In this document: positions 14,708 through 58,100 of the stretch, piece by piece
Numbering within the stretch: the stretch's first letter is position 1
Layout: each line of letters begins with the position of its first letter
From: Haliclystus octoradiatus
Lineage: Eukaryota; Cnidaria; Staurozoa; Stauromedusae; Haliclystidae
Reading direction: 5' to 3'
DNA: 64,000 nt
Assembly: GCA_916610825.1 (NCBI GenBank)
Contig: OU744446.1
Span: forward strand, 2,368,501-2,432,500
Position numbers and translations under genes: made by a program
Notes under the pieces: model-generated
Told to the model about the DNA's origin: nothing
The model's database searches: none
Seen by the model: the letters and a program-made list of their open reading frames with translations, nothing else

Positions 14708-15359
14708 ACGTTACTATTCCATGAAGGAGATCGTTAATGTGTATCTTTAATTGACTAATGTCTTCATATAATGCACTGATATGCATCAATAAAGTCTATA
14801 TTTATATGACTTATTATCTTATATCAAGCTTGTATTAATGTATAATTAATGTTTTAAAGCCAGTCCAGTGAAAAGTATCTTATTAACTGTTGTCATTTTA
14901 TGTATACTTATAAGGTATTTCTGAATAAATGATGATGATAATGACGATGTATTCATTTTATTACAGTCAAACTCCTCGTAGTAAGCGACCACTCAATGGA
15001 GCCTCCGATTATATGGTCGCTAACAAGGAGTGGTCGCTGAGTAAGGACAATAGAGATATTGAACAATACACGGAAATAATAGAAAATTAAACCTCCGACG
15101 GCCGACATATTAATATAAGTCAATATGAATTAAACTGTTTCGTAGCAGTTTTATATAAATTATCTATTAAAAAAACGTACCATCTCGGTAGGCAAATTGT
15201 CAAAATTCACTCAATTTACATGCTGATATTTCGACAGTATATTATTACCGCTAGATGAGCTTTTTAATAAAATGTTTAAATTGTAGATATGCTCCATAAA
15301 TTTTATTAAATATTTAATGTCATATATAGTTAATAAACGAAAAAATCAGACATTCATAT

Positions 15360-15399
15360 TTGCTACTATTAGTTTCACGCCAAGGCGATCATCAGGCAA
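15360..15399 (-). ncRNA. Type I hammerhead ribozyme motif, opposite arm
   Basis: Exact reverse complement of 15502-15541, so the same stems and intact core are read on the minus strand. A transcript through both arms on either strand would carry one ribozyme and one antisense copy, and would tend to fold on itself. Confidence 0.65.
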
Positions 15400-15501
15400 T
15401 TTAATCCATATAATTTCATATAATTTAAATATAATATAATTTAAAAATATAATATAATTGCCTAAAATATAATTTAAGGCAATATAATTTAATCGATTAA
15501 A

Positions 15502-15541
15502 TTGCCTGATGATCGCCTTGGCGTGAAACTAATAGTAGCAA
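15502..15541 (+). ncRNA. Type I hammerhead ribozyme motif
   Basis: Order read on the + strand: stem I TTGC (15502-15505), core CTGATGA (15506-15512), stem II CGCC-TT-GGCG inside a T-T pair (15513-15524), GAAA (15525-15528), stem III ACT-AAT-AGT (15528-15536), cleavage nucleotide A (15537), stem I GCAA (15538-15541). All invariant core bases are present. Activity is inferred, not shown. Confidence 0.7.
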
Positions 15542-16635
15542 ATATGAATGTCTGATTTTTTCGTTTATTAATTATTAAACAGCTCTGCATTTATGGCATC
15601 GAGCACTATTGAAACAGCAAAGACAACATAAGCACCTTATTGATATTACTAATGTCATATATATATAGTATTCTTCTTCTTATATACTGTATTTTAACGA
15701 TAACTTCACTCTAATTTTCAATTTTTTACCCCTCTGATTCTTGTAAAAATACCCGATGGTAACAGTTTTTGCTAATATTCAGTATAAAACGAGTTTAAAT
15801 AAATTTATGATTGTTGATGATGATATTAAAAATATTTGTACAAAATTACCTTTGAATTCTTTCAAAACAAGTTCAGTTGTGAGTGAAAACAAGTCCAGTT
15901 GTGAGTGGTTGGTGATTTAATCGATACTATTTATTTTTATTATTTACATCATTTGCTAGCTGATTGCTTCATGTAAATATCGAGTTGTAAACCACCAAAC
16001 TTGTAAACTTCTTGTTTGTTCGTCTCTTCATTTTGGATTTGTTTGTAAAAGATCAAATTGGATTCGATTGAATGATCTCATTGTTAGTAGTGCCAATTCA
16101 ATTGTATCCTTTTATTATAGGTATAACTCATTTTCGCATGTTCGAACCTTTTTCCTTGATTTAGTTGTTCATTCCTTCTTTATTGCTTGATTATGATACG
16201 AGTCCATTTATATATTTTCTGGCTAACTATTATATCCAAAACAATTTTTTGAACGATGCAGATGGTTTGACTTTCAAAATGTATGCCAGAATTCATTTGA
16301 AATTTTATGCGCGTCTTTTCTGTGTGGATACTCCGTAGTACTCCCACACTGCAAATGTATATTGTGATCCGTATTATTATTGTTGTTTGTTTGGGAAATT
16401 GCTTTCGCCTCATCTTTGTCTCTTATTATATCGCTGTTTGTATAAATGCTGCGCGTCGTTCAGTTCAATGTCTTCTAGAAAATTGTGAATACCAGATCAA
16501 AGGCCAAAGTTACCCACATGATGCCAAAGTTTGAAATAATCGCCAGTAACTAAGTCATATTTCAATTATGCGAGGGATGTTTTATTAGACGTTTCAATCT
16601 GATTTCTTAGTTTGGTATATTCATGGTATATCTTA

Positions 16636-20199: not shown

Positions 20200-20662
<463 letters not shown>

Positions 20663-20727
20663 TACCGCTCTGCCAAATGTTGACATTGAGCACTATTTTG
20701 TCTGCTATTAGATAAACCTATACTTAT

Positions 20728-20729
20728 TA

Positions 20730-20776
<47 letters not shown>
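20728..20776. repeat. (ATT)n microsatellite, short
   Basis: About 16 ATT units separating the two palindromic elements. Confidence 0.95.
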
Positions 20777-20778
<2 letters not shown>

Positions 20779-20809
20779 AATAGAGGAGTCAAAGACTACA
20801 CATTTTGTT

Positions 20810-20853
20810 ACTGTAACTTGAAGTTTCACGCTTTATTGCGATCATCAGACAGT
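20810..20853 (-). ncRNA. Type I hammerhead ribozyme motif, opposite arm
   Basis: Exact mirror of 20886-20929 on the minus strand with the same intact core and stems. Confidence 0.7.
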
Positions 20854-20885
20854 TAAAACTAGATAACTAGTTTTATCTAGTTTTA

Positions 20886-20929
20886 ACTGTCTGATGATCG
20901 CAATAAAGCGTGAAACTTCAAGTTACAGT
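20886..20929 (+). ncRNA. Type I hammerhead ribozyme motif
   Basis: Stem I ACTGT (20886-20890), core CTGATGA (20891-20897), stem II CGC-AATAAA-GCG inside a T-T pair (20898-20911), GAAA (20912-20915), stem III ACT-TCA-AGT (20915-20923), cleavage nucleotide T (20924), stem I ACAGT (20925-20929). Stem I differs from the 15.5-kb copy yet stays fully paired. Short stem III is typical of metazoan type I hammerheads. Confidence 0.75.
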
Positions 20930-21015
20930 AACAAAATGTGTAGTCTTTGACTCCTCTATTTATATTTACAGCTCTGTCAACAGACATTGAGCACTGTTTT
21001 ACTGCTATTGGATAA

Positions 21016-21370
<355 letters not shown>

Positions 21371-21407
21371 TATTAACATGTATTTGTCTGCTGCTATGTA
21401 TGTCTCA

Positions 21408-21423
21408 ATTGCGCATGCGCAAT
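21408..21423. promoter_or_regulatory. NRF1-type palindrome in monomer 1
   Basis: Contains ttgcgcatgcgcaa, a full NRF1 consensus palindrome, repeated exactly 260 bases later at 21668-21683 in monomer 2. It is about 580 and 320 bases upstream of the receptor start codon. It may be internal to the mobile unit rather than a promoter of the gene. Confidence 0.3.
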
Positions 21424-21605
21424 TTTGAGTACTATCGACTCGGGATGTGTCTATACTATTTGCATTATGCATTGCCCACTACTTCGGTAGTTTGAGCACT
21501 CTGGTATGGCACAGATGTTTTTTTCATGTGATGAATTTTTTCACCACATTTATAACTCATCTTGACTTAGGTGTATACTGAAGTCAGTTCCTTGTTCGCT
21601 CACTG

Positions 21606-21655
21606 AGCAATACTGATGAAGGCTAATGGCCAGAAACATGTACTTGTCTGCTGCT
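21606..21655 (+). ncRNA. Hammerhead motif at the monomer 1/2 junction
   Basis: Stem I AGCAATA (21606-21612) with TGCTGCT (21649-21655): 7 positions, one A-C mismatch and one G-U. Core CTGATGA (21613-21619). Stem II GGCT-AAT-GGCC region flanked by an A-A apposition. GAAA (21633-21636), stem III ACA..TGT (21636-21638 with 21645-21647), cleavage after C21648. The core is intact. Confidence 0.7.
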
Positions 21656-21865
21656 ATGTATGTCTCAATTGCGCATGCGCAATTTTGAGCACTATCAACT
21701 CGGGATGTGTCTATACTATTTGCATTATGCATTGCCCACTACTTCGGTAGTTTGAGCACTCTGGTATGGCACAGATGTTTTTTTCATGTGATGAATTTTT
21801 TCACCACATTTATAACTCATCTTGACTTAGGTGTATACTGAAGTCAGTTCCTTGTTCGCTCACTG

Positions 21866-21915
21866 AGCAGTACTGATCAAGGCTAATGGCCAGAAACATG
21901 TACTTGTCTGCTGCT
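21866..21915 (+). ncRNA. Hammerhead motif at monomer 2 end, core mutated
   Basis: Same layout as the preceding motif. Here stem I (AGCAGTA with TGCTGCT) is fully paired, but the core reads CTGATCA, losing the catalytic G8, so it should not self-cleave. Confidence 0.65.
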
Positions 21916-21999
21916 ATTATTATTATTATTATTGATATTAAAGAAAATGTCACATTTGAGCTGTTCTATTAATCTATATTTTTATCTTAACAGGCTAAG

Positions 22000-25100: not shown

Positions 25101-28100
25101 TTCAAGCCTTTCTCACATTTCACGATAATGTGGTTAATTTATGACCGTATCGAACAATACGCATGATCATACATGCGCAGGGAGGATTTTATGAAAACGT
25201 ATAAGATATTTCTATTTTATAAATCAGCTATTAAACACTTTATTGTGCAATATGGGTTATATGAACTCTCAGGTTGAGATGAGGCATTTAAATGGATATA
25301 AAAATCACTTGTTGCGGCAGCTTTTGATCTTCTTACGCCTTCCTCATGCCTGGCATAATGCAACACTTGCGTTTATATAACCCATATTGCACAGGAACTG
25401 TTAAATATTTGTATAATGTTAGTGATTGCAACTTGATCATTATATTAAAGTTTCATAATATTATAATAACCATATTAAGTCTGTAGAATAAAAGAAATAT
25501 TATATTAACAAAATGCAAATCGTTTTTACAAGAGTGTTCAATATTGTAAACTACCCCTGTAAGAACGATTCATGAACAGTCCATGAAAATTGGGAAATTT
25601 ATTGTACATGAACTACATCATAAACTGTTGAACTTCATGAACATGAATTAAAATATTAGTCCAGGCTATAAAATAAGGATTGAGACAGTTCGCAAGGCGC
25701 AGTGGAGGTGTTTAACCAATCAAACAATGGAATCACAGCATGACAGATTTTACAAGGGTAAACCCTTCTTATCTCAAATGAATATAAAATGGTCATAGAA
25801 ACGGGAAAAAGCCACTTTTTACAATCTAGCAACAATTCTAGCGACAATAGCCTTTGTCATACACAGGGTCCGACAAAAGTGGGGATCCCGGGATCCTAGA
25901 TCCCGGAAGGCTAGACAAAATTCAGAAGAAAATTGATTTTTTTAATGATTTTCTGGTCAAACCTCAACAAGAAAATTCAGAAGAAAAAGTTTAAATGCCC
26001 TTAGGATTCCAGAAGGCTGAACCTTTTGTCGGACCCTGGTCATACAAAACAATAGCTGCGGCAATTATATTTATCTGAACCCCTGCAAAAATAGTTCAGG
26101 AGTTCATCAACTGTTCATGAATTCCTGAACTGTTTTTCGCAGGGGAATATTAGGTACTCTTGTATATTTTTCAATAATAGTTTGTTTCTGTCTGATGATT
26201 GCTATAAAAGCATGTAAACTCAAACTTAAAGTAACAGTATGAGAATGTGTGATCTCTGACTCCTTTCTATTTCTATTATTATTAAATGATGTGGTGTAAG
26301 TTGTCTTACTGATTGAAAATAAGGCTCAATGCTATACAGAAGAGCTTTTACATAATATATAAAATATAGATTCAAAAACATGATTCGCAAACATAGAGTC
26401 GCAAACATGATTGAATGATTTTTGACTCTATATTTTATATATTAAATGATTTATAATAAATAAACAAAAAAATCAGACATTCGTATTTGCTACTATTAGT
26501 TTCACGCCAATGCGATCATCAGGCAATTTAATCTGATTAAAAAGACTACATAAGTACCTTTATACTACTATGAATGATTTATATGTCATTAACGTTCCAT
26601 GTTACAATAGTTTTTTTTTCATGGGCTAAGATGTTAATTGGAAATAGCATCAGTCTTTCTTATCATATGGCAATCTGAAAGCAGGGAATGACATGAATAT
26701 CAGATAAAAATTAAATTTGAACTTCCATTATGGTATACAAAACAAAGTAAGAACTGTTATTATATCTAAAAACCTTCTGAATTAATTCTGACTTTTAAAT
26801 GCGGGATCCTGTCCTAATATGACAGCATGTCCATGAGTGGCGTTTTAACACAATTGAGTTGTCAGGGAGACGTGAAATTTACGCACAACTAATTTTGAGA
26901 TGTACTTTGATATCATTTTAGGTACCAGAAAACGATGAAATCTATACTGTGAGAATTGTTAACATAACTGGTTTATCAGAAATATTAGAAAATAATCGTG
27001 AAATGGAATTACGTATCAAAGAAAACGATGCACCAATTGCATTCCAATCTCCATTCTCATCTGTATTAGAACCTCATATATTTCATGTGATTGTCTTGCG
27101 TGGTGTCGATACACAAGGACGTGTTGGTCCGATCGATCATAATGTAAACATTTCTTACGAATCGTTTGGTGGTAGTGCTATCGCAAATCACGATTACATA
27201 CCAGTGAATGGAACATTAATCTTTGACCGTGGTATTACTCGTCAAGATATAATTATTAATATTATTGCAGATAACTTTCCTGAATTAAGAGAAACATTTA
27301 ATATTCGTCTTTTTAATAATTCAGAAAATATTGTGATTGTTCAACCTAATGTTACTGAAATACGTATTTCAAAAAACGATGATCCAAATGGTGTTATTTC
27401 GTTTAAAAAACTTCTAATGACGGATATTGAAACTGTTGTGTTGGATTATCAATTAGATATACAAGTAAATCGGTCGATGGGACTATATGGAAATATCTCA
27501 GTATCATGGAATGCTACAACTTCACAAGATGATTTTTGCAATAATATTGAAGACATTTTACAATTTCCATCTGGGACAGTTGAATTTTTACAAAATGAAA
27601 ACATCAAAATGATCCATCTGCAAGTTAAAAATCATACTGTACCTTGGAAAGCATGTCCGTTTATCATCGAGCTTTCAGCAGTTTATGGTGGAGCTCGTTT
27701 ATCGTCAACTTTAGAAGGAAATCCTAAAGTTCGTATTATAGCAAGAGATCGTAATGATGCTTATGGAGTTTTTAATATCGACCCTTTGGTATCATCTCTC
27801 GAGCTAGTAAGTTGACACATATTTATTGTGAAGTTTTGATATAAGTCACATCATCAACGGCGAGGTGAATATCGGCTAACAATGACCACAGTCCACCATA
27901 GTCACTCCGTCAGCACAACCCCTGCAAAAACAGTCCAGGAGTTCATGAACAGTTCATGAACGTTAAATGGCCCCAAATTTTCATAAACTGTTTATGAACT
28001 GTTCATGAACTGAAAATGTAGCCATTTAACGTTTATGAACTATTGATGAACTGTTGATGGGGAAGGGGAAGTGCTTGTTTATTTGGGGACATAAACACTT

Positions 28101-31100
28101 TTAACAGACAAAAAGAAACATGTGTATCGCACCCCGGTCTCTCGTACAAAGTGCGTACACTCTGCTATTGAGCTACCATGCCAGTGTACACAAATAGAGC
28201 CAATGACTACACAGAGTTTCATTGGCTAATTTTGTCTGAGTGTTCATCAGCTATTCATGAAATTCATGATCTGTCCATGAACACCTTATAAACAGCTTCT
28301 GAATTGTTCCATAATGGTAAATAGTCTGTTTTTTGTGAATTTTTTTATGAACGGTTTTAATGAGAGGTCAACTAACAGTAAGCATTTCAACACATCGATT
28401 GATTTGAGTAACAACTTGGTAGTTTATCAGAATCTTCTTGGTGATAATTTTGGTACAAAATAACAACACAACTAAGTTTGCACAACGTTTCGACTGATTA
28501 ACTTCAGCCATTCTAAGTGAATGTTTTTTTATTAATAATTAAGCTATATATACATAAAAATTGTTTGCCCCTTGAGGGTAAAGTTACATTATGAAGAATA
28601 TTTACAATATGATATCGATATCAGTGACAACAGTAACTATGGTAACTAGCCTAGATATATTTCTAATCCTTAGAGGAAATGCTGTATGTATCATGAAATG
28701 CATGCAGTTATTTAAAAACTTTGGCTCGGATGGAATCGTCTTGGCCGTTTAATGTTGGTTTCAATTCTTGAATTGCCAGCATTTCATTCACGAGACAATT
28801 GAATTTATTTTTGCACTTTTTTATGATTTAAAATGTTTTTCAAATTCATCAGTAGATATGCCGTGCTCTAGACGGACGTGTGTACCAAGGTTACCTTTGT
28901 TGTGTTCATCTATGCGTTCATATAGGTGCCGGAATGTATAGCCGGCATAGTCTGATTCGCACAGACCACATTTAAAATGATATATGAAGCATTGTTGGGT
29001 TAACAAGTCTGGTAAAAATAGTGTTAAAATTTACATTTATTTTACAATTTAAACGGTAAAGTTCTTTCCTTGTTTCATCGCATGATTGTTGATCTTTAAA
29101 CGGTAAAACTATACTAACATATTTTATATTATTGTCTGGTAAAGCTGGAGAATTAAAAACACGGGGCGGATACTTAAGTTTACTAAAAATGTTAAAAAGT
29201 ACTTTACATTCAATGTTAAAATCAGCTTCAGAGGAACAAAGACGATGCGCTCTGTGAAGCATTGTCTTTAAAATACCAATTTTATACCTTTGGTCTACGT
29301 GACTCTGATAATGTGAAAGAAGTCCTTTGTTTGTTGATTTTCGGTGGACACTCGTTGATATTTCTGTGCCGGTATTGGTCATTTTGATTCCAAGACAAGG
29401 TAGTTGTTTATTTTCCTCTAACTCAATCGTAAAGTTTATTGACGAGTGTGCTGCATTCAGAATCGATAATAAGTTTTCTGCTTCTTTTATATTTTTTACT
29501 ATTGCCAAGGTGTCATCCACATAGCGCCAGTAGAATTCCGGTAATTTATTAGATTCGGATAAATTTTTTTCAATTTTTCACATAAAAACGTCAGCTAATA
29601 AAGGTCCCAATGGTGATCCCACAGCCACTCCATCTGATTGTTCATACAGCTCACCATTTAATTGAAACAATTGATCCTTGATAGTTAATTAGTTTATTCA
29701 TTTTATATTCTATAGTTTACTAATCCTAGACGAATTACTGTCTCAGTGACTCGCTCTGGTGGTTCATTCGGATTGGTTGATGTCAACATCTCAGCCAATT
29801 ACCTTCTGCCTGGAGAGCTCACACCTTCACGTTCAATTCTTTTGGAAGCATCACCCGTTACAATACAAATGATAGAAGGACAACGCAATGCCACTGTTGT
29901 GTTTACAATCCGTAGTGATGTGTTTTTGAAAAGTAACGCTGTGATCAGAGTTATGGTTGATTCAGCTGAATTACAAGGTATATCCAATGACGCAGACGGT
30001 GCGACTAAAATCCATGAGGTGTTTATGAACTTTATATTTATATGAACTACCTCTCAATCAATTAATCAATCATGTTGTTATGAATGTTATTCTACCGGAG
30101 GTGTGCATTCGATATGCACTGAGGTTGTCACCATCTATGCAATGCTATACAATTAGTTAGCGGGACTTCATGCAAGATGAATGGCGCTACGGTATCAGAA
30201 AGGTCTGTGTTGAGTCCCCTGTGCCCAATGGGAAGTGACAAAACATGTGTCACATCAGCCGCCTTATCAATTGTGTGCTAACTTTTCATTCATACATTCA
30301 CCACTATACAAAGATGACCTTTATATACAGGGTTATTGATTCAATAGAAAATACTATTATAGACATTGCGATAGTGATCACTATAGACAGGTTGCTGATC
30401 TATAGAGGTGACTGTTATACTGATGCTCTACTGTATTATTAAATATATTTTAGACATTGTTATCTTGCATCCCATAACCCCGTCTCCTGGAGAGGACTCA
30501 ACATTACTCATTAACATAACAATGCCGTTAGCCAACGGTGAAATATCATTTAGTGGTGAATCAAATGATGTCACAGTTATTGAACCTGATGGAAGTGCAA
30601 GTAAAAAATTAAATTTAACTGTCATAAGAGACGGTACTATTTCTGCAACATCTGTGCAATGGAGGGTAGTCCTTATCACTGCTTCGCTAGATGATATTGG
30701 GCTGACGAAAGGGATTATTCATTTCCCTATTGGTAAGTAACATTCAAAGCTATTTATCTTGATTACAATGTTGTCCATCGATTGCTGATAAGAGAGAGAG
30801 TTAGCTCTCAGATCTGATCATATCTGGTTGACTGTGGTTTGAAAAATGACCCTCAAGGTCAACTCAGCCTTGACTTCATTAAAACATCAAATTGGCGGAT
30901 TGAATGGTACCGAGGGAATTACATTGTGAGCAGATGCGGTGTATGGCTGCACATTGACATTTGAGATCTATCTGCCATGAAATCTGTTGATTTTGATGTG
31001 CAGTGTCACGGCTGATATCCGTAAAGAGTAATTAAAATGATTGCTCTTAACTAAAAATAAACACTCCTCTAGAAATAGAGGAGTGGTACGAGTGCCTTCA

Positions 31101-43100: not shown

Positions 43101-46100
43101 GGTTATAAAGAATACTTAAATGTTCATTTAACGGTACCAGATACTGTGAAATCAATTGAAGTCTCATTTATTACCAATGGAAAGGAAAATAGCTTCCTGG
43201 TAAGTTAAGTATAATTTGCTTGGATCAATCCATGGGAAGTATGTTCTTGAAGGTGTAACCCCCTGCGAAAATCAATTCAGGAGTTGATTAACGCTAAATG
43301 GCCCCAATTTTCATGAACGTTTAAAAACTTTTCGTAAATATTTTTACTAAAAATGATAATTCATAATTTAGTGCCTGTCATGAATTTTCATTTAATTGTT
43401 GATGAAATGATATAATTTTGAACAACTGCCGCTAAGACAATCTTTGTTGAGTTCATAAACTGTTCATGAACCTCCAATACTGTTGATGAACAGTTCATGA
43501 ACTTTGAGAATATCCATGGACTGTTCATGAACACTGAATAAACAGTATACAAACATTAGATAACATAGTGAATAGTTGTTAATTTTCCAATCAGTTCCGA
43601 TTCACACATTTTTGAAAAAGATGTATGCTGTGAATGCAGTGGGCTGTGCAACTTTTATATCAGATAAAGGCGATACAACACAAGTCAAATATTCGCTCGA
43701 CCCTTAAGCGATACATAAACTTATAAATTGATTTCCGTAGTTGAATCTTATCGATTTAATTATTTATATAACCTTCAGGTGTATATACCAACAGACATTT
43801 CATTAAATAATGGTGATTGGCATTCAATTGCATTGTCAGTATCTGAAACTAAAACCAGACTATTTATTGACGGAAAAGAACAAAATCCACAGTAAGTAAT
43901 TAACATTATGCAATAGCTTAGTGCTTCGGAATTATGTAATAATAATTTGTTGACTTTGATGGCATTTGGCTGTGACGTAGTCACCTATAATTATAAACAT
44001 GTAAATACCTACTGTGATTATTGTGTAACTGCTAAAGTCATATGATCTTAATATAGTAATTGTAATGTATGTTGAAATATACTCAGTTCTATCAGACATA
44101 ATGCAAGCGTGTTCTCTGTCTAGAACGACACCACATTGGCAAAGGGAGTTGACTTCATTTATTACAGTTTTTGTATAAGAACTTACGTTATTGGTGGCAA
44201 AATTTTAATTGAGTACTCGATGCAAATATAAGAGCAGTATAGAAATAAAGTCAAAGATTAGTCGCTGTATTCGTTACTCAGAGTTTCACGCGATAACTCT
44301 CATCAGGCTGTTTTTATTCGTATAGTAAAGTAGTATAGTATACTAAAATGGTATAGTATAATATAGTATAGTATAGTATAGTATAGTATAGTATAGTATA
44401 GTATAGTATAGTATAGTATAGTATAGTATAGTATAGTATATAGTATATGATAGTAGAATGTAAAGTAAATATAGAAACAACCGTTCTGATGAGCGATATC
44501 CAGCAAAACTCTGAATAATGAAGACAACGTCTAATCTTTGACTTTACATGTATATATGTTTTGTTTTTATGTCTTCATAATACATTATTTCTAGCTGCCA
44601 AACTAAAGCACTGTACATATTATTTTCTAGGGGACCGTCAGGGATTGCTGCATTTATAGAAAGCGAATTGTATGTCGGTTGTTCATACCCTGGTGTTGAT
44701 CATTTCAAAGGCTCAATACAAGATGTTTCAATTTACCCAAAAGCCTTAACTGCAAGGTAAGCGATAACTACATGCCTTTGTCAATAATATAGACTACAAG
44801 ATGCTGAATGAAGCAAGATACTAACAACGTTTAATACTACGGTATACTAAAATCATATACCGGTATATACTTTATCGTTATACTTTTACTACACTTTTAC
44901 GTTATTATATACTACTATAAAGGAGGATTAGCTCTGATGGCAGAGCAACCGAACTTCAGACGGGATCATATCTGATCGACTGGTGGTTCAAATCCCCCTA
45001 AGGTCATTACTCAGCCTTGACTTTACCTCAAATATCAAATGAGTACCATCTAAGGATGGCAGATGGAAATGGTCCAGAGGGAATTGCATTGTGAGTAGCT
45101 GCGACGCATCGTTGCACATTGGCAATCGAGTCCTATCTGCCATAAAATCTGTTCTGATGAAATTGATCTGCAGTGTCGCAGGTCAGATCAGTAAAGAGCG
45201 TTTAAAATCATTGCTCTCAGCGAAAAAAGCCACACATCTGATAATAGGGGAGTGATACGGGTGCCTTCGGTAGGGCGACATTGTCTACGTTACTTATTTA
45301 CTACTATGTCTTGTTGTGGGTAATTGTAAAACATCGTCAAAAGTACTGTGTAGTTAATTAGAGGGTGAACTTTCGATAGCTTCATTTACTTGTTTCGTTC
45401 ATTGGTGTGCCGTTGGAATCATAGATGGATATGGGTAATGATGTAGAGACCAATTAGAGGGTTGAAAGCAAGTCCCGCCAACAAGGGCTTGATCACTGGG
45501 ACGGTAATATGGAGGACAACCTAGAAATCAAAACAAATGCATCATTAGCTAAAAATTGTTTAAATGCTCATGTTACCTTATTATGGTAATTATGATCAAA
45601 GATTTGCTAGTTAAACCTGCTGTCCATTTAAAGTTGAATGAAGTTCCTAGTATAGTACAATATTAAACATTTAGTATGTATAGTATATATATTCATTATA
45701 AAAATCATTGTCTGCATCTTATAACATTTGTCCTGTGATGTATATAAATACATTCTTTGTATTTTGGTGCTTGGTCGATGGGAGGTCAGCAGCCAACAAC
45801 AAACAACAATAGCTAGGATTTCCAAGAAAGCACCCCTGTCATCACCATCCATAAGCAGTCATCAGGCAGTATCTCTGAAACTCTAAGGCTGATTGAAACT
45901 CCAAGTTATGAGAAAGGCTATGGCCTTATTCTTGCTCTAATCTATGTACGCTCTGTTTTAACCCCTGTCCAAAAATCCATGAGTTCATGAACAGTCACGA
46001 AGAGTACATGAACACTTCTTGAACCGGTTCATGAACTGGTCCATGAATATGAAATTGCCTGAAAGTTCATGAACTTTTTTTGGCAGGGGAATAAACATTT

Positions 46101-49100: not shown

Positions 49101-52100
49101 AACGGCCGCCATCGAACCTTCATTTTTGTCTAACGCCCTATCATCTCTTTAATATAAATCAGTGGTATAGACCACTACATATGCTTGAAGAATATATGTA
49201 GATCATTGTGTTTCATCTCTTATAATATTTAGGTCAAGTTGGATGTGAATGGAGAACAAAGGCAATCACTGCCGTTGAAAACGTTGATTTTGCTGCCACT
49301 GTTTCAGTCGAAACCTTTCCTCCATTTCAAAATTCAATTGAGATTAATTTGGATATTCCTGATAATTCATTGCCTGAACTTGAAAAGACGTTCAGTGTTG
49401 AATTATTCAATCCTAGTGGTGGAGGTAGGTTCAGTGAAACCTGTTTATAACAGCCAGATATAAGATGTAGATAAATTGAGCACTATGTGCAGCTGGCCTA
49501 TATATATATAGCGTTGAGTTGATTCAATGAAAATACTATTTTAGACATTGCAAAAGTGAACACTATAGACAAATGGCTGCTGTATAGAGGTGACCTGCAT
49601 TATATATTTGACTGCGTATAACAGCCAGCTACGAGAGGTAGATGGACTGACCACTCCCCTGCAAAAAAATCCATGAGTTCATGAACAGTTCATGAACTTC
49701 ATGAACAGTTCATGAACTTCATGAACATTTCATGAACAGTTCATGCCTAGTTCATGAACATTTGTTTGCAGGTTCATGAACAGTTCATGAACATTACATG
49801 AACAGTCACAAAGAGTTCATGAACTGGTTTATGAACGTTAAATTGCCCAAAAGTTCATGAACTTTCATGTTCATGAACTCATGAACTTTTTTTCGCAGTG
49901 GCTTTATGAACATGGCCTATATTTACAAGGTTGATTCAGTAGAAAATACTATTTTTGACATTCATTATCGACAGGTTGGTGTTGTATAGATGTGACCGTT
50001 ATAAAAGGTTTTACTATAATGCTGTCATTCATTTAGACTCTTCAATATCAGGCACTCGTTCATGTAAAAAGGTTTAATGAGTTCATGAACGGCTCCGATG
50101 ATCTGATGTTAATACATTATGAATCATGGATATTTTGAATCGCTACTAAAAACCTGTTGAAAACATACTGGAATGGCATTGAGTACTGAAAACATACTGA
50201 AACTCACAACACTTTAGAATCTAAATAAAAACTCATTCTACTGAAAAACCACTGAAATGCACTTGAAATTTGAAAGCTAGAAAAGAGCCCAATTCAGTAT
50301 TCTATTCAGTAAGTTTTCAGTAATTTTTCAGTAGGCTTCCATATTTTCAAAATTCATTATGTAATTATAAGGTCATGCTAATCTGACCAAAAATTTATCA
50401 AGCTTGTGGTTTAGCTTCATATGGCATATTTTATGTTAGAGTAGCTCATTATAGATCATTACGTGCAGTTGGCTCTACCCAAGGTCATGTAACACACAGT
50501 TTGTAAGTTTATGGTCTTTTTGACTGTTTTAAACACTGTTCGTGGACATTATAGTTAAGCAGTTCATAAACAGTTCATATTTGAATAGTTGAATGAAAAT
50601 TGCTCTTTTCATAAACGTTGCCATAAACATGTCATGATAGTTCATTGTACAACGTGAAACTTGAGTTGTTTGCCTTTCATGAGCTTTATCAAATGTATTT
50701 CACTGGAGACCTCAAGCTTTGCAACTCACAGTCAATTAAATTGTAATGATGATCAATTTTTGTTCATTTACTTTTCTTCTTTATATCTTTAACGCTGCTG
50801 CAGCTTCTTATTCTATTTTCTCTTTCTTTTTGAATTTATGTTTTTTTTTATATCTCCCACAGCACGTCTCGGGAAAGGATCTATGGCTTACATAACAATA
50901 CTACCAAGCGATGATGCCTTTGGTATATTCAGTTTGATGTCATTGGATATCGTAAATTTCAAAGAAGGTGACAACGTTGTCATACCTATTACACGTCAAG
51001 CAGGTGCTCTCGGACCAGCCACATTGCAATGGAGGGTAACAAATATCAAATCTGAATCAGAAATTAATCCATATTTTGGAAATGTAACAATTGCCAAAGG
51101 AGAATATTCAGGATTGATTCGATTTGCAGTTATTGATGATGAGGTAGGTACATTCATAAATATGTTTACAAAATAGTAATCTTCTTTATATGTTAGTAGC
51201 GACAAGTAAAACACACAATAATTTGCAACATTTTCCATTTATTTACAAATCATTATCAGGCAAATAAAATATAGATATGCCTGACGTTGATTCAAGAATA
51301 AATTGAAGTAGACTGAGTGCCACATAACTAAAACGGCAGGTTTCTCCGGGCAACTTGAAATTCACATAAAAGTGTAACAATTAAACAACTAAACAACTAC
51401 CGGTACCTAATTCTTGTTTTAGTCAAATTTTATTATGGAGCTCACCAGATATCACGGTCAGAGCCCTCTTACTTGATACATTTTATGTTTTCGTCATGCT
51501 TCTATGGGTTCACAAAATCTTTGGAGAACAAAAGAATCAAAGACCATGAAGCTCACATCCAGCATTTTCTCAAAATGATAAGAAGGCTTTGACCGTGAAT
51601 CATGAAATATAAATTGGATTTTTGAAGGGTTTACAATAGAATGTAATTTAAACAAGAAATAGGTAATTGTTTAGCATATTTTTATGAACACTTTTATGTG
51701 ATTTTCAAGTTCCTGAAGAAACCTGCCGTTTTAGTTCTGTGGCGCTCGGTCTAAAGCTGTTGCAAATTATTGTGTGTTTTATTTTTCACTACTCAGTATA
51801 GTGAGATTAAAATTGAGTACCTCTCATTCAATAATGAAATTCCTCCTCCGAAAACAGTTCAGGAGTTCATGAACAGTTTATGAACAGTTCATGAACAGTT
51901 CATGGACGTTAAATGGGCCCAAATTTTCATCAACTGTTCCTGAATTGTTCATGAACTCCTGAACTGTTTTTCGCAGGGGTCAGAGTAGATTATATGGAGT
52001 AATACATTTAAACAGCAGACTTACCCCTGTGAAACAATTTTGTGAGTTCTTTAACTTGTTCATGAAGGGTTCATGAACTCTTCGTGACTGTTCATGAACT

Positions 52101-55100
52101 TTTCATGAACCCACAAAAAGTGCTCATGAGCTGTTCATAAGACTATATATTAGAGAATGATGAACGCTTGACTATAGACATAACAATACAATGTAATAAC
52201 TTCATGGATGGCAAAACATCAATAGATTGCTCGATGCGGATATGCAGAGCAGTATAGAAATAAAGTATTCTAAGAATACAATGTATGTAGTTTCTCAAAA
52301 GAAGATATGAGATCATGCATAATATCGTATTATTCTTGAATAGATATAGGAAATATTCTATCCCCTACTAATAGTTTGAATACCAAGGCCATTATATTGA
52401 GTGGGCATGAGGAGATTTTACCAAGCCCCACCTAGGTTTTACTGCTAGAAAATTTCCTTGCTAGATTTTCTTTAGCTCCATTGTTCTATTGGACTATCTT
52501 GGTGTCTTTTGACATCAACCCTGAGATAATAATTCAAGTATTCATACACATAAACTGCCCGTTTCATCACAGAGCCTGTTGCGTTGTTTACGTCAAACCG
52601 ATTCTGATATCATTTGCATATCCCCTGCGAAAAACAGTTCAGGAGTTCATGAACAGTTCATGAACCCTCACAGACAGTTCATGAACAGTTCATAAAAATT
52701 TGGGGCCATTTAACGTTCATGAACTGTTCATGAACTGTTCATGAACTCCTGAAACTATTTTCGCAGGGGATACATTGTACAATTGTAATTGGGAATAGCC
52801 ATGGGAATAACCTCTGCGAAAAATGTTGTTGATTTATTATCTTTTTTTTCATATTCATTTCAAGATTTAACAGTTGATGAACGTTAAATCTCCTGTTTTT
52901 ATAGACAGTTTTCATGAATTGGTCATTTAACTGTTCTTTTTACTATTTACCTCATTCAATTCAGATTCATGTCTGTTTAAGCGCCTGAAATTTCCGTTTT
53001 TTTCTCAGAAATATGATATTGAGTCATCGTTGCCATAACAACCATCTTAGGAATGATTTACATAATTCCACAGATAGCCAGGAGACCGGGAAAAACGTAG
53101 CCATTCAACCTTCATGATTTGTTTTCGCAGAGAGTCATGAACATGAATTTATCCAATTTTTTATAAACTGTTCACGGAGTGCTCATAAACACGTTTGCAT
53201 TCAAACTATTCTGATTAATTTGCGTTATAATTAATTCGATATTCAATGATGTATTTTATATCTTATTCTGCATTTTTAGATTCCAGAACTAAATCAGCAA
53301 TTTACCATTGAATTATATCAATCATCAGAGGGACGTATCAACCAAAGTGAAAATACTGTGATTATAACTATCTTATCAAACGACTATCCGTTTGGTTTAT
53401 TTGTACTTTCACCTGATCAAATAATTATAAATGAAGCGAACAATTCGATGGCATCTATTAACATTTATAGAGAACGAAGCAGTAATGGTACTGTTCATGT
53501 TAGCGTCTCTACAAGATCACCCAGCGTAATAGATAATAGTATGATACCTGCTAAAGCTAATGATGATTATATATCGGTATCAGAAGTATTAATATTTGGA
53601 CCTGGCGAAATTAATAAAACATTGAATGTAAAAATTATAGAAGATTCTATTCCAGAAGCAAGGGAGTACTTTATTGTGGAAATCACAAATGTTCGGCTAA
53701 TTGATGTGATATCTAACGGTAAGTAATGTACTTTATATTGCAAGATAAATTTTATGAAATAAGATTCTTTAATATCAAGTAGGTTTTCTGCAATCTGATT
53801 GGTTGAAAGAGCGTACATGAACTCCTAGGGTGAAACATGGCTCCGAAAACCGGGGAAAGCCGCTAGCTTTAAAAATTTATATCTGTAACAAAATACAGAA
53901 ATTGTAACTTTCTGATAACAATCCAATAAATATCTCAATTATGGCAGCGATTTGCAAAACGATATTTATCTCAAGATGTTTATATTTATATAAAAATGTG
54001 GTAAATGAGTTATTAGTTGTGCAGCGTGCAAAATAAAAACACAGAATGATGGACACTTATAGGCTACGCTGTTTCAAGGTTAACCTAAAATTTAAATAGC
54101 AATTACTGCATTAATTTGCTAAAGAACTATTGTACCACTTATATTACAGACGTTCTTGTATATGTCTTTCTTTATTCAACAATATCTATCTTGTTGTGGA
54201 TGTGGAAAACCCTTTGCTTGATTCATGAATTGAAATTGAATTTTAAAATGTGAATTTTGTTAATTGAAAATTTGCGGTCAAATGAGATTCCTACGTTTGT
54301 TTTATTTAAGAAAAGGGTTACCACACGCTTGCAAATGTTTGTATTCATAATTACTAATCTCGAAAAAGTTGGAGACACTCGAGAGGCTAAAAATCACTCG
54401 CTCGGAGCTCTTGATTTTTAGCGCTTCTTTCGTGTCTCCCAACTTTTTCTTGTTTAGTAAATATGAAAGAAAACATGGCAAGTGTGTGATAACCCTTTAA
54501 CAAAACACCCCCTACCGAAATCATTTTACATGAATTTTGAAGTGTTCATAAACAGTTCATTTATGTACGGGGTTGGTTCAATGGAATATCTCAGTTGAGA
54601 CTTTACTGACATCACCCCCCCCCCCCCCAACCAACATAGACAGGTGGTATCTACAAAATGAAGATGACCAATCAATATTTCATACTATAAAATATGTATG
54701 TAACATCAACTTATACGATGTAGGTACTCTGGTACATTGACAACTCCCTGTGAAAAACAGTTCAGGAGTTCATGGCCCAAATATATATGAACTATTCATT
54801 ATAGATAGATGATCTTTATATACAGGATCGATTCTATAGAATAAAAAGTTTCATATTATAAAACAATTCATTTTACAAGATGATACATCTTGTAGAAAAT
54901 TTAATGAATTCATGAACAGTCCTCGAGAACAGCACATGACCCTGATGAACTTTCATAAAGGGAATACCTTGTTCATGAACAGTTTGTGATATATAGTTAA
55001 TAAATATATCGTGAAAGTTCATGATAGGCAAATGATCCACTTTTTGTGGACCTTTATGAACCGTTAATGGAAGAAAATGGCGTCATTCAACCCCTATGAA

Positions 55101-58100
55101 ATGTGTTTCACAACGGATATATAAATTTTGATCTTCATACAAGCAAACTTGTATATTACTCAGAGGATAATCTTCCTACAAGGATATCAAATGACAGTTA
55201 TTAGCATAGCATATTAGTTATCAGAATTTATTTGATTCATTATGATTCAATTGTTGTTTTAGTTGGACCAGATTCACTTCCTGCTATTGGCCAACAAAGC
55301 ACAACTAATGTGATAATCAATTCAAATGACTTTGCAAATGGCGTTTTACAATTCTCAGCTTCTCGTATTAATTTAACCGAGGATGATAATCAGAGTTTTG
55401 TTAATATTACACGTACGAGTGGTCTCTTTGGACAGGTAACCCTATGACGTCATGAATATCACTGAATTATAATCATAAATCAAAACACAAATCAGGCATT
55501 CAGATTTGCTGCTGATAGTTTCACGCCTTTGGTGATCATCAGGCAATTCCCTTGCGAAAAACAGTTCAGGAGTTCATGAACATTTCATGAACGTTAAATG
55601 GCTCCAATTTTTCTGAACTGTTCATGAACAATTCATGAACCCTCACAGACAGTTCATGAACAGTTCATGAAATTTGGGGTCATTTAACGTTCATGAACTC
55701 TTCATGAACTTTTCATGAACTGTTCATGAGCTGTTCTAGAACTCCTGAACTGTTTTCGTAGGGGTTAGATTGAATTGCTTGATGACAGTTAAAGGCATGA
55801 AGCCATTAGTAGCCTATATGAATGTCTGATTTTTGCGTTTGTATTGAACCTCTACTTTAGTCGAGGCTCGTTATTTCTGGCATGCCAAAACAAATTCGGA
55901 AGTGTTCTCAAAAACAGCAAAAAGTCAACACAAGTTAGAATATGCAGTGTTGTCCAGGGCCCAAATTTTCATCAACAGTTCTTTAACCTTCACGGACAGT
56001 TCATGAGCAGTTCATGAAAATTTTGGGGTATTTAACGTTCGTGAACGGTTTCAAATGGGCTGGATTCTGATTCTATTCAGAATGAAATTATGATAATTTA
56101 TTTTGAGAGCAGGAAAGGATTATTAGCGTATATAGCGTTATTATAATAGCATACCGGTAATAGTATGATATAAAAATTAACATTAGACTAAGTTGTAGCT
56201 AGTCAGAAGCATGATGTTGCGGCGGTGCTCATCAGATATATCAAGCCTTTATTGTTGTCTATTTCAGGTTTCTATTAGCTATGAAATCATTAATGGCCCA
56301 TCATTAACATCAGACGATTACGTTGTACGTTCATTTGAAGTTGTTTTTAACAAAGGAGATTCTGTAAAAATCTTACCCGTAACAATTGCTAATGATGATA
56401 TTCCAGAATTCAATGAACAATTTACGATCAGGCTATTACCGCAGAGTATCAAAGGTGGAGCTGTCATTGGTGCTATAGATGAATGTATTGTTTTTATCGC
56501 TGAAAATGATTACCCGTATGGACTTCTTGGTGAGTGATTTTTTAATGGATATAATGTGGAGAGTTTCTGATGAGTCTCTCGGCTGGAACGAAGCCTGTGT
56601 CATATCATTAATTATTTAATCAGTGAAGTTGTTATTCAATACTGTCACCATATGTACAGTTTGTTAGAAGGACTTCTGATGTGGTGCCTGATGAGTCTCT
56701 TGGCAGGGACATGCTACACCAGCTTTATAGATAATGTCAAGAGTTGCAAATTTTACAGGCGTGGGCGCTTTTGAGAAGAGGGACTACTTATATTTTACGT
56801 TACTTTTGATGAATTGCAAATAAAAATCTACAAAGGCAATTTTGCTCATTTGGTGAGTGAATTGAGCCAAACAAATGTATGTTTAAAGTTCATATGGAAC
56901 TGAACATTTCATGAACCGTGTATGAGCATGTAATAGCTCATAGACAGACATATCAAATTTTATGAACAGTACAGGGGTCTGAGGATAACTTAGTCAGTCA
57001 ACTTTTAATCAGTTTTCTGGGTGAAAAAAATTGTTGTTCCATGCATGTTCTTCTCTTCTCTATGCACCTAAAACAGTATGTATTTTTGTTAGAATTTTCC
57101 AAGGATTCACTTTCAAACCATTTCAATGAGCCTCGTGGTGATGCTGAACCTGTGATTGTTAAATTGAATGTTACACGGAGTGGAGGTACAGAGGGACCTG
57201 TACAAGTTGTTTGGAATTCAACGAGTGACGCTAATTCAATGATGCAGATTTCACCATCATCTGGACATTTGTTATTCCTTAGCGGAGAATCATGGCGTGA
57301 GCTATCATTTGGAATTGTCCCTGATGATACGGCAGAATTAAATCAGGTAGAAACTCTTTGAAACTTCACATCAAAGGTGTTCATGAACTGTTTGTATGCC
57401 ATGAACATGTTGTGACAATGCCATGAAAATGTAAAAAATAAAAGCAATAATTTTTTAGAGCCATAAAAAGTTTGAAAACCATCAAAACCTTCATATTCAC
57501 AATATTAAAATGAAAACGTAATAAATTTCATGTTTTCTATTCATGCTTTTGGTGTCAGAAGTGCACAGTTCATGAACTTCTGGATAATCTTGAACTACAG
57601 AAACTATTCACAAACAGTTCATGAACTTCTGGATAATCTTGAACTACAGAAACTATTCACAAACAGTTCATGAACTTCTGGATAATCTTGAACTACAGAA
57701 ACTATTCACAAACAGTTCATGAACACCTCTCTCAGCTAATCAAAATTGAGAACATTTGATTGTAAATTTGTTTGTTATCCAGGAAATACCTGCATATCTA
57801 ATAAATTAATGAAAACCCCTACAGAAAAAATCCATGATTTCCTGAACAGCTCATGAGCTTCATGAACAGTTCATGCACCGTTCATGAACGTTTTTTTGTG
57901 GGTTCATAAGCAGTTCATGAACAGTCACAAAGAATTCAAGAACACTTCATGAACCTGCATATCTAATAAATTAATGCAAACAAGTGGAATATTAAGGATT
58001 ATTTAAATCATGTTGTCATTTTTTAAAAGATTTGATTGATATTTTTCATCGCAGACAATTCACATCTTCCTTCAATCAACTATCTACGGCAAGGCTATCA

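What the first reader, a model, noticed from the sequence alone, without database searches (positions are those of the whole stretch)
20775..20964. Perfect 91-bp-arm palindrome carrying a complete hammerhead ribozyme in each arm
Seen: on the + strand 20886-20929 gives ACTGT / CTGATGA / CGC-loop-GCG / GAAA / ACT-TCA-AGT / T / ACAGT, a full type I hammerhead with all invariant core bases. The other arm gives the same on the minus strand. Known: type I hammerheads occur in Penelope-like terminal repeats and in retrozymes. Inference: this is a head-to-head pair of ribozyme-bearing monomers, an inverted form I do not recall as a described class, so that transcripts of either strand contain an active motif.
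Basis: partly seen in the sequence, partly recalled or inferred. Interest (0 to 1): 0.9.

Follow-up and report, generated by a model that had tools for sequence, protein, structure and literature searches.

The report
Head-to-head ribozyme copies of a retrotransposon
The perfect palindrome is one of a large family of tiny retrotransposon insertions in which two copies of a self-cutting-RNA segment sit head to head, and their junctions look like a record of how this poorly understood class of jumping gene inserts itself.

Summary
In detail: 92-bp arms, a 6-nt centre, a hammerhead in each arm. A covariance model built from relatives outside the window finds both arms (63.6 bits, E 2.7e-15); Rfam's own models stay below threshold. 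It is neither unique nor an assembly fold-back: 27 loci carry palindromes with the same inner arms, with 23 different centres, and the hammerhead core occurs 295 times. Copies have a 3' tail on one unit only (26 of 26 scored). The arm is the hammerhead-bearing pseudo-LTR of Penelope-like retrotransposons: in a tandem of an intact relative, hammerhead, arm and tail lie just before the ORF. I read each palindrome as two cDNAs of the RNA's 5' region, primed from both sides of one break and joined head to head. Unit ends pile up at -53..-46 from the cleavage site in the main family (44 of 52) and at -1..+1 in a sister family (22 of 35 junctions), a likely footprint of ribozyme cleavage. Head-to-head pseudo-LTRs and pseudo-LTR hammerheads are known; the abundant ORF-less palindromes and these footprints are the new part.

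The parts
20775..20866 (-). unit B of the palindrome (arm without tail), ending outward in CTATTTATA
20809..20854 (-). hammerhead in unit B; predicted cleavage between 20815 and 20814
   Evidence: R1 63.6 bits; position by symmetry
20867..20872 (.). centre CTAGTT, different in most other copies
20873..20964 (+). unit A of the palindrome (arm with tail)
20885..20930 (+). hammerhead in unit A; predicted cleavage 20924/20925
   Evidence: R1 63.6 bits; descriptor
20965..21028 (+). one-sided 3' tail TTTACAGCTCTGTCAACAGACATTGAGCACT..GGATAATATTTATTATT; its end within the TTA repeat is approximate
20576..20662 (+). second palindrome, sister subfamily, 43-bp arms; junction at the predicted hammerhead site (ACAG begins at 20617); own tail follows, about 20663-20720
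15330..15649 (+). third head-to-head pair, another subfamily: unit B 15330-15406 (-), filler, unit A 15495-15571, tail about 15572-15649
   Evidence: R1 at 15358-15401(-) and 15500-15543(+), 48.1 bits each; sequence
15315..15328 (.). left target-site duplication TAATGTCATATATA of the third pair (right copy 15650-15663)
   Evidence: read

Best explanation
The palindrome is a non-autonomous mini-insertion of a Penelope-like retrotransposon family. The arm is the family's hammerhead-bearing pseudo-LTR; the tail is the 5'-UTR stretch that follows it before the ORF. Proposed steps: (1) the element's endonuclease cuts both strands at a TTA/TA-rich site; (2) each DNA end primes reverse transcription inside the RNA, one end beyond the tail, the other at the arm/tail border, so that one unit carries the tail and the other does not; (3) when priming falls in the 5'-proximal pseudo-LTR, both cDNAs run off the RNA 5' end, at about -52 from the cleavage site (uncut RNA, main family) or at about +1 (hammerhead-cut RNA, sister family); (4) the two cDNA 3' ends, which carry short self-complementary stretches, are annealed or end-joined, leaving a head-to-head palindrome with a variable centre. 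Shown here: the family, one-sided tail, variable centres, sharp end positions, target duplications in some copies, and the pseudo-LTR's place before an intact ORF in a relative. Inferred: the enzymology, the RNA species and the joining step.
For: One-sided tail in 26 of 26 scored insertions, unit B always ending at the arm/tail border. 23 distinct centres in 27 palindromes. 44 of 52 unit ends in -53..-46 (16 of the 26 insertions were best hits of the palindrome search, which favours this; in the 9 from pattern-fetched loci it is 11 of 18). Sister family: most upstream start at -1..+1 in 22 of 35 junctions. Tandem of an intact relative: hammerhead, arm, tail, ORF start in that order. RT matches in this genome: 35 neighbour pairs head to head, 1 tail to tail. 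Target duplications: clearest at L004 (17 bp shared), L066 (16), L009 (14). Base-pair changes on both sides in 4 of 10 hammerhead pairs, 80 of 80 cells paired. In vitro precedent: a Penelope-like protein cuts and extends both strands and starts at two internal sites bounding the tail (PMC11167929, parts 1-2 of 4 read).
Against: The family's own ORF has no Pfam hit and only weak profile similarity to a canonical PLE (hhalign probability 11.9%); its GIY-YIG domain is recognised from recalled motifs only. No main-family copy with the full ORF was read; the tandem is a 67% relative. An older copy in L006 appears to have tail on both sides. L006 (main copy) shows no target duplication and many targets are microsatellites where none can be called. 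Arm-variant and unit-distance tests do not separate this from fold-back. The in vitro study found no need for hammerhead cleavage and no RNA reads ending at the site. No RNA data here.
Confidence: 0.68

Rival explanations
1. Fold-back (self-priming): one cDNA or an antisense RNA snaps back at its end and copies itself, as proposed for Adineta vaga Penelope elements.
For: Proposed in print from palindromic junctions (PMC3846280, passages). Most minis have nearly equal unit ends. Copy-specific variants occur in both arms in 2 cases.
Against: Unit B stops at the arm/tail border in 26 of 26 instead of copying tail and flank. Long pairs can have very unequal ends, e.g. -579/-1123 and -912/-1013. 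26 arm variants are in one arm only, though later mutation explains that too.
Confidence: 0.2
2. Same insertion route, but the -52 end is not the RNA 5' end: reverse transcriptase stops or switches at the upstream edge of the folded hammerhead.
For: -52 lies at the outer edge of the extended stem I; in a third subfamily (window 15330-15571) the units also begin just upstream of the hammerhead.
Against: 14 of 30 hammerhead loci fetched in coordinate order continue upstream of it into the element, so it is no absolute stop; the sister family's pile-up is at +1 instead.
Confidence: 0.25
3. A foldback or MITE-type DNA transposon that captured a hammerhead.
For: Long inverted repeats in TA-rich targets.
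Against: One-sided tail, variable centre, duplications of varying length, long forms continuing into an RT-like ORF.
Confidence: 0.02
4. Assembly fold-back artefact.
For: Perfect palindromes can arise in assembly; no reads were seen.
Against: Many loci, different centres, one-sided tails, one-arm substitutions.
Confidence: 0.01

Closest known systems
Penelope elements with inverted pLTRs in Adineta vaga (PMC3846280, passages seen)
   Same: Head-to-head inverted pLTRs, tail on one of them, palindromic junctions, target duplications (8-10 bp there), solo pLTRs, protein-less cargo between pLTRs.
   Different: The passages seen do not mention hammerheads (the word does not occur in the text) and the copies are few and mostly ORF-bearing; here ORF-less palindromic pairs are abundant.
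PAc (Poseidon of Anolis carolinensis, PMC11167929, parts 1-2 of 4 read)
   Same: Hammerhead at the pLTR-ORF junction, tail bounded by two internal RT start sites, both DNA strands cut and extended, AT-rich (ATT) targets.
   Different: There the tail lies inside the ORF and cleavage was not needed and not seen in RNA reads; here the tail lies in the 5' UTR, and a sister family's junctions pile up at the cleavage site. Head-to-head products are not described in the parts read.
Retrozymes (PMC7229834, PMC7761336, passages seen)
   Same: Small non-autonomous elements with type I hammerheads; a U-U mismatch at the base of helix II is also described there (axolotl).
   Different: As I recall them, retrozymes are head-to-tail repeats that spread as RNA circles cut out by two hammerheads of the same strand; these are head to head.

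Membership tests
Type I hammerhead ribozyme | Core CUGANGA / GAAA / UH in a three-way junction open at stem I | tested here: met
   U-U at the base of helix II is a departure
Type I hammerhead ribozyme | Helices kept by paired changes in relatives | tested here: met
   80 of 80 cells paired, 4 of 10 pairs with changes on both sides, helix III invariant
Type I hammerhead ribozyme | Match to Rfam hammerhead models at curated threshold | tested here: not met
   HH9 21.7 bits, cut-off 52; no hammerhead row at E <= 1 for L078 or window 15300-15640
Type I hammerhead ribozyme | Self-cleavage | not testable with these tools
   Indirect only: junction pile-up at -1..+1 in a sister family
Penelope-like element | RT related to PLE RT plus GIY-YIG endonuclease in the autonomous partner | tested here: inconclusive
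   No Pfam hit for the arm-bearing ORF; hhalign probability 11.9%, E 0.0025 to a canonical PLE; YRDD and YIG motifs recognised from recall
Penelope-like element | Pseudo-LTR with hammerhead next to the ORF start | tested here: met
   L078, a relative with RT 67% identical
Penelope-like element | Optional tail on one of the inverted pLTRs | tested here: met
   26 of 26; apparent exception in L006, older subfamily
Penelope-like element | Tandem and inverted copies, AT-rich target, target duplications | tested here: met
   (clear in some copies, not callable in microsatellites, absent at L006)
Retrozyme | Head-to-tail hammerheads bounding a monomer (recalled) | tested here: not met
   Head to head in all copies read
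MITE / foldback DNA transposon | Both element ends formed by the inverted repeats | tested here: not met
   One end is a unique tail in 26 of 26

The most novel reading that the evidence does not exclude
The mini palindromes are preserved reaction products of a retrotransposon that reverse transcribes from both sides of one DNA break and closes the gap by annealing its two identical cDNA ends. In one subfamily the hammerhead sets the RNA 5' end, so that the genome records ribozyme cleavage in vivo and gives this ribozyme a role: it cuts tandem transcripts and creates run-off ends whose cDNA (ACTGT-3') is nearly self-complementary and so joins to its twin.
Probability: 0.4. Interest if true: 0.82.

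Novelty: new variant of a known kind. Interest (0 to 1): 0.66.

Why it matters
[quoted passage not shown] A genome with hundreds of short insertions whose junctions can be read makes specific predictions testable: two priming sites, both strands, run-off at a defined RNA 5' end, and cleavage at a predicted nucleotide.

Tried and rejected
Rejected: assembly fold-back; MITE (one-sided tail); retrozyme for the palindrome (orientation); microRNA precursor (one search lists many microRNA models, all below their thresholds, as a long perfect hairpin would).

Led nowhere: Rfam for these hammerheads; Pfam, PHROGs and PDB sequence search for the arm-bearing ORF; arm-symmetry and unit-distance tests do not separate dual priming from fold-back. 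One search's pattern had too short loops and found nothing. One search's BLAST ends were too generous (L059 apparent start +1; the stricter extension gave +19), so L059 is not counted as a cleavage-site junction. One search's regex keeps one parse per start and missed the main family; one search replaced it with ten chosen representatives. One search pairs only units within 60 nt whose outer end matches the main-family anchor; identical sequences count once (the main copy of L015 equals L014), and copies with one unit cut into the anchor (L048, L055) and long pairs (L053/54, L060, L062, L073) are outside its 26. In one search, 1-2 chance bases before ACAGT count as natural, hence the range -1..+1 rather than +1. 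The species was not determined.

Not found in print: abundant ORF-less palindromic hammerhead pLTR pairs, or junctions piling up at the hammerhead site (searches; open-licence library only; the PLE-hammerhead papers PMC4209133 and PMC5785218 are not held).

Full report
What is there. Window 20775-20964 is a perfect inverted repeat with 92-bp arms and a 6-nt centre. Each arm holds a hammerhead with all core bases; predicted cleavage on the + strand is 20924/20925. The motif beats chance (5 descriptor hits in the window, 0 in 60 shuffles). A covariance model built from 8 relatives outside the window scores both arms 63.6 bits, E 2.7e-15, and finds six more copies in the window at E <= 7e-4. Against this, Rfam's models stay below threshold, give no hammerhead row at E <= 1 for two clear relatives, and folding energy gives no support. 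Across the 8 relatives the structure pairs in 80 of 80 cells, with changes on both sides in 4 of 10 pairs; helix III does not vary.

It is a mobile family. A genome search with the palindrome returned 90 match rows from 40 scored of 1112 first-look candidates. The hammerhead core occurs 295 times and the tail 275 times at up to 3 mismatches. In 26 of 26 insertions that could be scored, two units stand head to head and only one carries the tail (24 main family, 2 sister subfamily); an older copy in L006 appears to have tail on both sides. Target duplications are clearest at L004 (17 bp shared), L066 (16) and L009 (14); many targets are (TTA)n or (TA)n and cannot be judged, L006 shows none, L075 could not be scored. 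The third pair in the window has TAATGTCATATATA on both sides.

Where the arm comes from. Of 30 hammerhead loci fetched in coordinate order, 14 continue upstream into a common 3' UTR, several of them into an ORF with an RT-like sequence. In a head-to-tail tandem (period 2523) of a relative with a 740-aa open frame and an RT 67% identical, the junction reads hammerhead, arm, tail, TTATTATTATTA, further 5' UTR, ORF start. So hammerhead and arm form a pseudo-LTR and the tail is 5' UTR. In PAc of Anolis, reverse transcription starts inside the RNA at two sites that bound the tail, and both DNA strands are cut and extended (PMC11167929, parts 1-2 of 4 read). The family's own protein is divergent: no Pfam hit, weak profile similarity to a canonical PLE of the same genome, 484 database relatives at E <= 1e-5.

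Orientation. Among RT matches 250 bp to 6 kb apart (150 rows printed of 160; 119) 35 neighbour pairs are head to head, 34 head to tail (most at exact unit periods, two of them pieces of one copy) and 1 tail to tail; the two members of that one match the query at 63% and 66% and probably belong to different families. Long head-to-head pairs can be unequal (L060 about -912/-1013, L062 about -579/-1123).

Where the units end. Counted from the predicted cleavage site, 44 of 52 unit ends lie in -53..-46, 6 in -42..+19 and 2 at -451/-463; none of the 52 lies in between. Sixteen of the 26 insertions are best hits of the palindrome search and favour equal ends; in the 9 that came with pattern-fetched loci 11 of 18 ends lie in -53..-46. 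Of 27 palindromes with exact inner arms 23 have distinct centres; AGATCT recurs in 4 and AGATAATCT in 2, self-complementary or nearly so. Many centres look like re-copied pieces of the ends, as in error-prone end joining (inference).

The ribozyme footprint. In the main family junctions at the cleavage site are rare: 2 palindromes, one reading ACTGT|ACAGT, and one mixed -52/+1 junction. In the sister family that includes the window's second palindrome, 19 junctions match the cleavage-site pattern and 27 a wider control pattern, 35 different places. The most upstream unit start is at -1..+1 in 22 of 35, at +2..+8 in 11 and at -8/-9 in 2; none at -7..-2, where would have shown them if the partner unit began at or before +4. 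Nine of the 22 share one centre and may be related by descent or by repeated annealing of ACTGT ends; counting them once leaves 14 of 27. I read this as run-off at the 5' end of hammerhead-cut RNA. The Anolis study found no RNA ends at the site and no need for cleavage, which fits the main family better than the sister family.

Mechanism. Both DNA ends prime on the pseudo-LTR region of the RNA at its two start sites, both cDNAs run to the RNA 5' end, and the ends are joined. This accounts for the one-sided tail, the constant outer end of unit B, the head-to-head order, the equal ends of most minis and the variable centres. Fold-back (PMC3846280, passages) accounts for equal ends but not for the stop of unit B at the arm/tail border nor for unequal pairs. 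Arm variants (2 shared, 26 one-arm, in 22 minis) and unit distances do not decide. A transcript through a mini palindrome would fold into a 92-bp hairpin, so the minis are probably products rather than ribozyme sources.

Novelty. Hammerheads in PLE pseudo-LTRs, inverted pseudo-LTRs, one-sided tails and palindromic junctions are in print. I found no description of abundant ORF-less palindromic pairs or of junctions piling up at the hammerhead site (open-licence library only).

Noticed in passing
window 21375-21917: A 260-bp head-to-tail repeat (2.1 copies, 98% match) next to the palindrome holds a hammerhead-like motif with a GUC site; intact stem I in related copies in L050, damaged in the window; retrozyme-like in layout. 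Rfam gives no hammerhead row for L050's copies at E <= 1.
   Followed up: partly
window 26186-26239(+), 26485-26528(-), 55504-55548(-), 44270-44312(-): Four further hammerhead copies of the same family found by model R1, E from 1e-11 to 7e-4.
   Followed up: partly
G000 C8:5690929-5722477, C5:8760019-8773164 (window relative at 28972-29577, minus strand): Head-to-tail arrays of a canonical Penelope-like element (RVT_1 hit, GIY-YIG just under cut-off) at an exact 2629-bp period; three loci read are 99.9-100% periodic; no hammerhead core found in them by a relaxed pattern.
   Followed up: partly
L006 2615-2958: An older subfamily head-to-head pair that appears to carry tail sequence on both sides, against the one-sided rule.
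   Followed up: no
window, many places, e.g. 49676-49836, 52644-52747, 57565-57724: GTTCATGAAC-type 11-bp tandem repeats scattered through the introns of a gene with Calx-beta domains.
   Followed up: no
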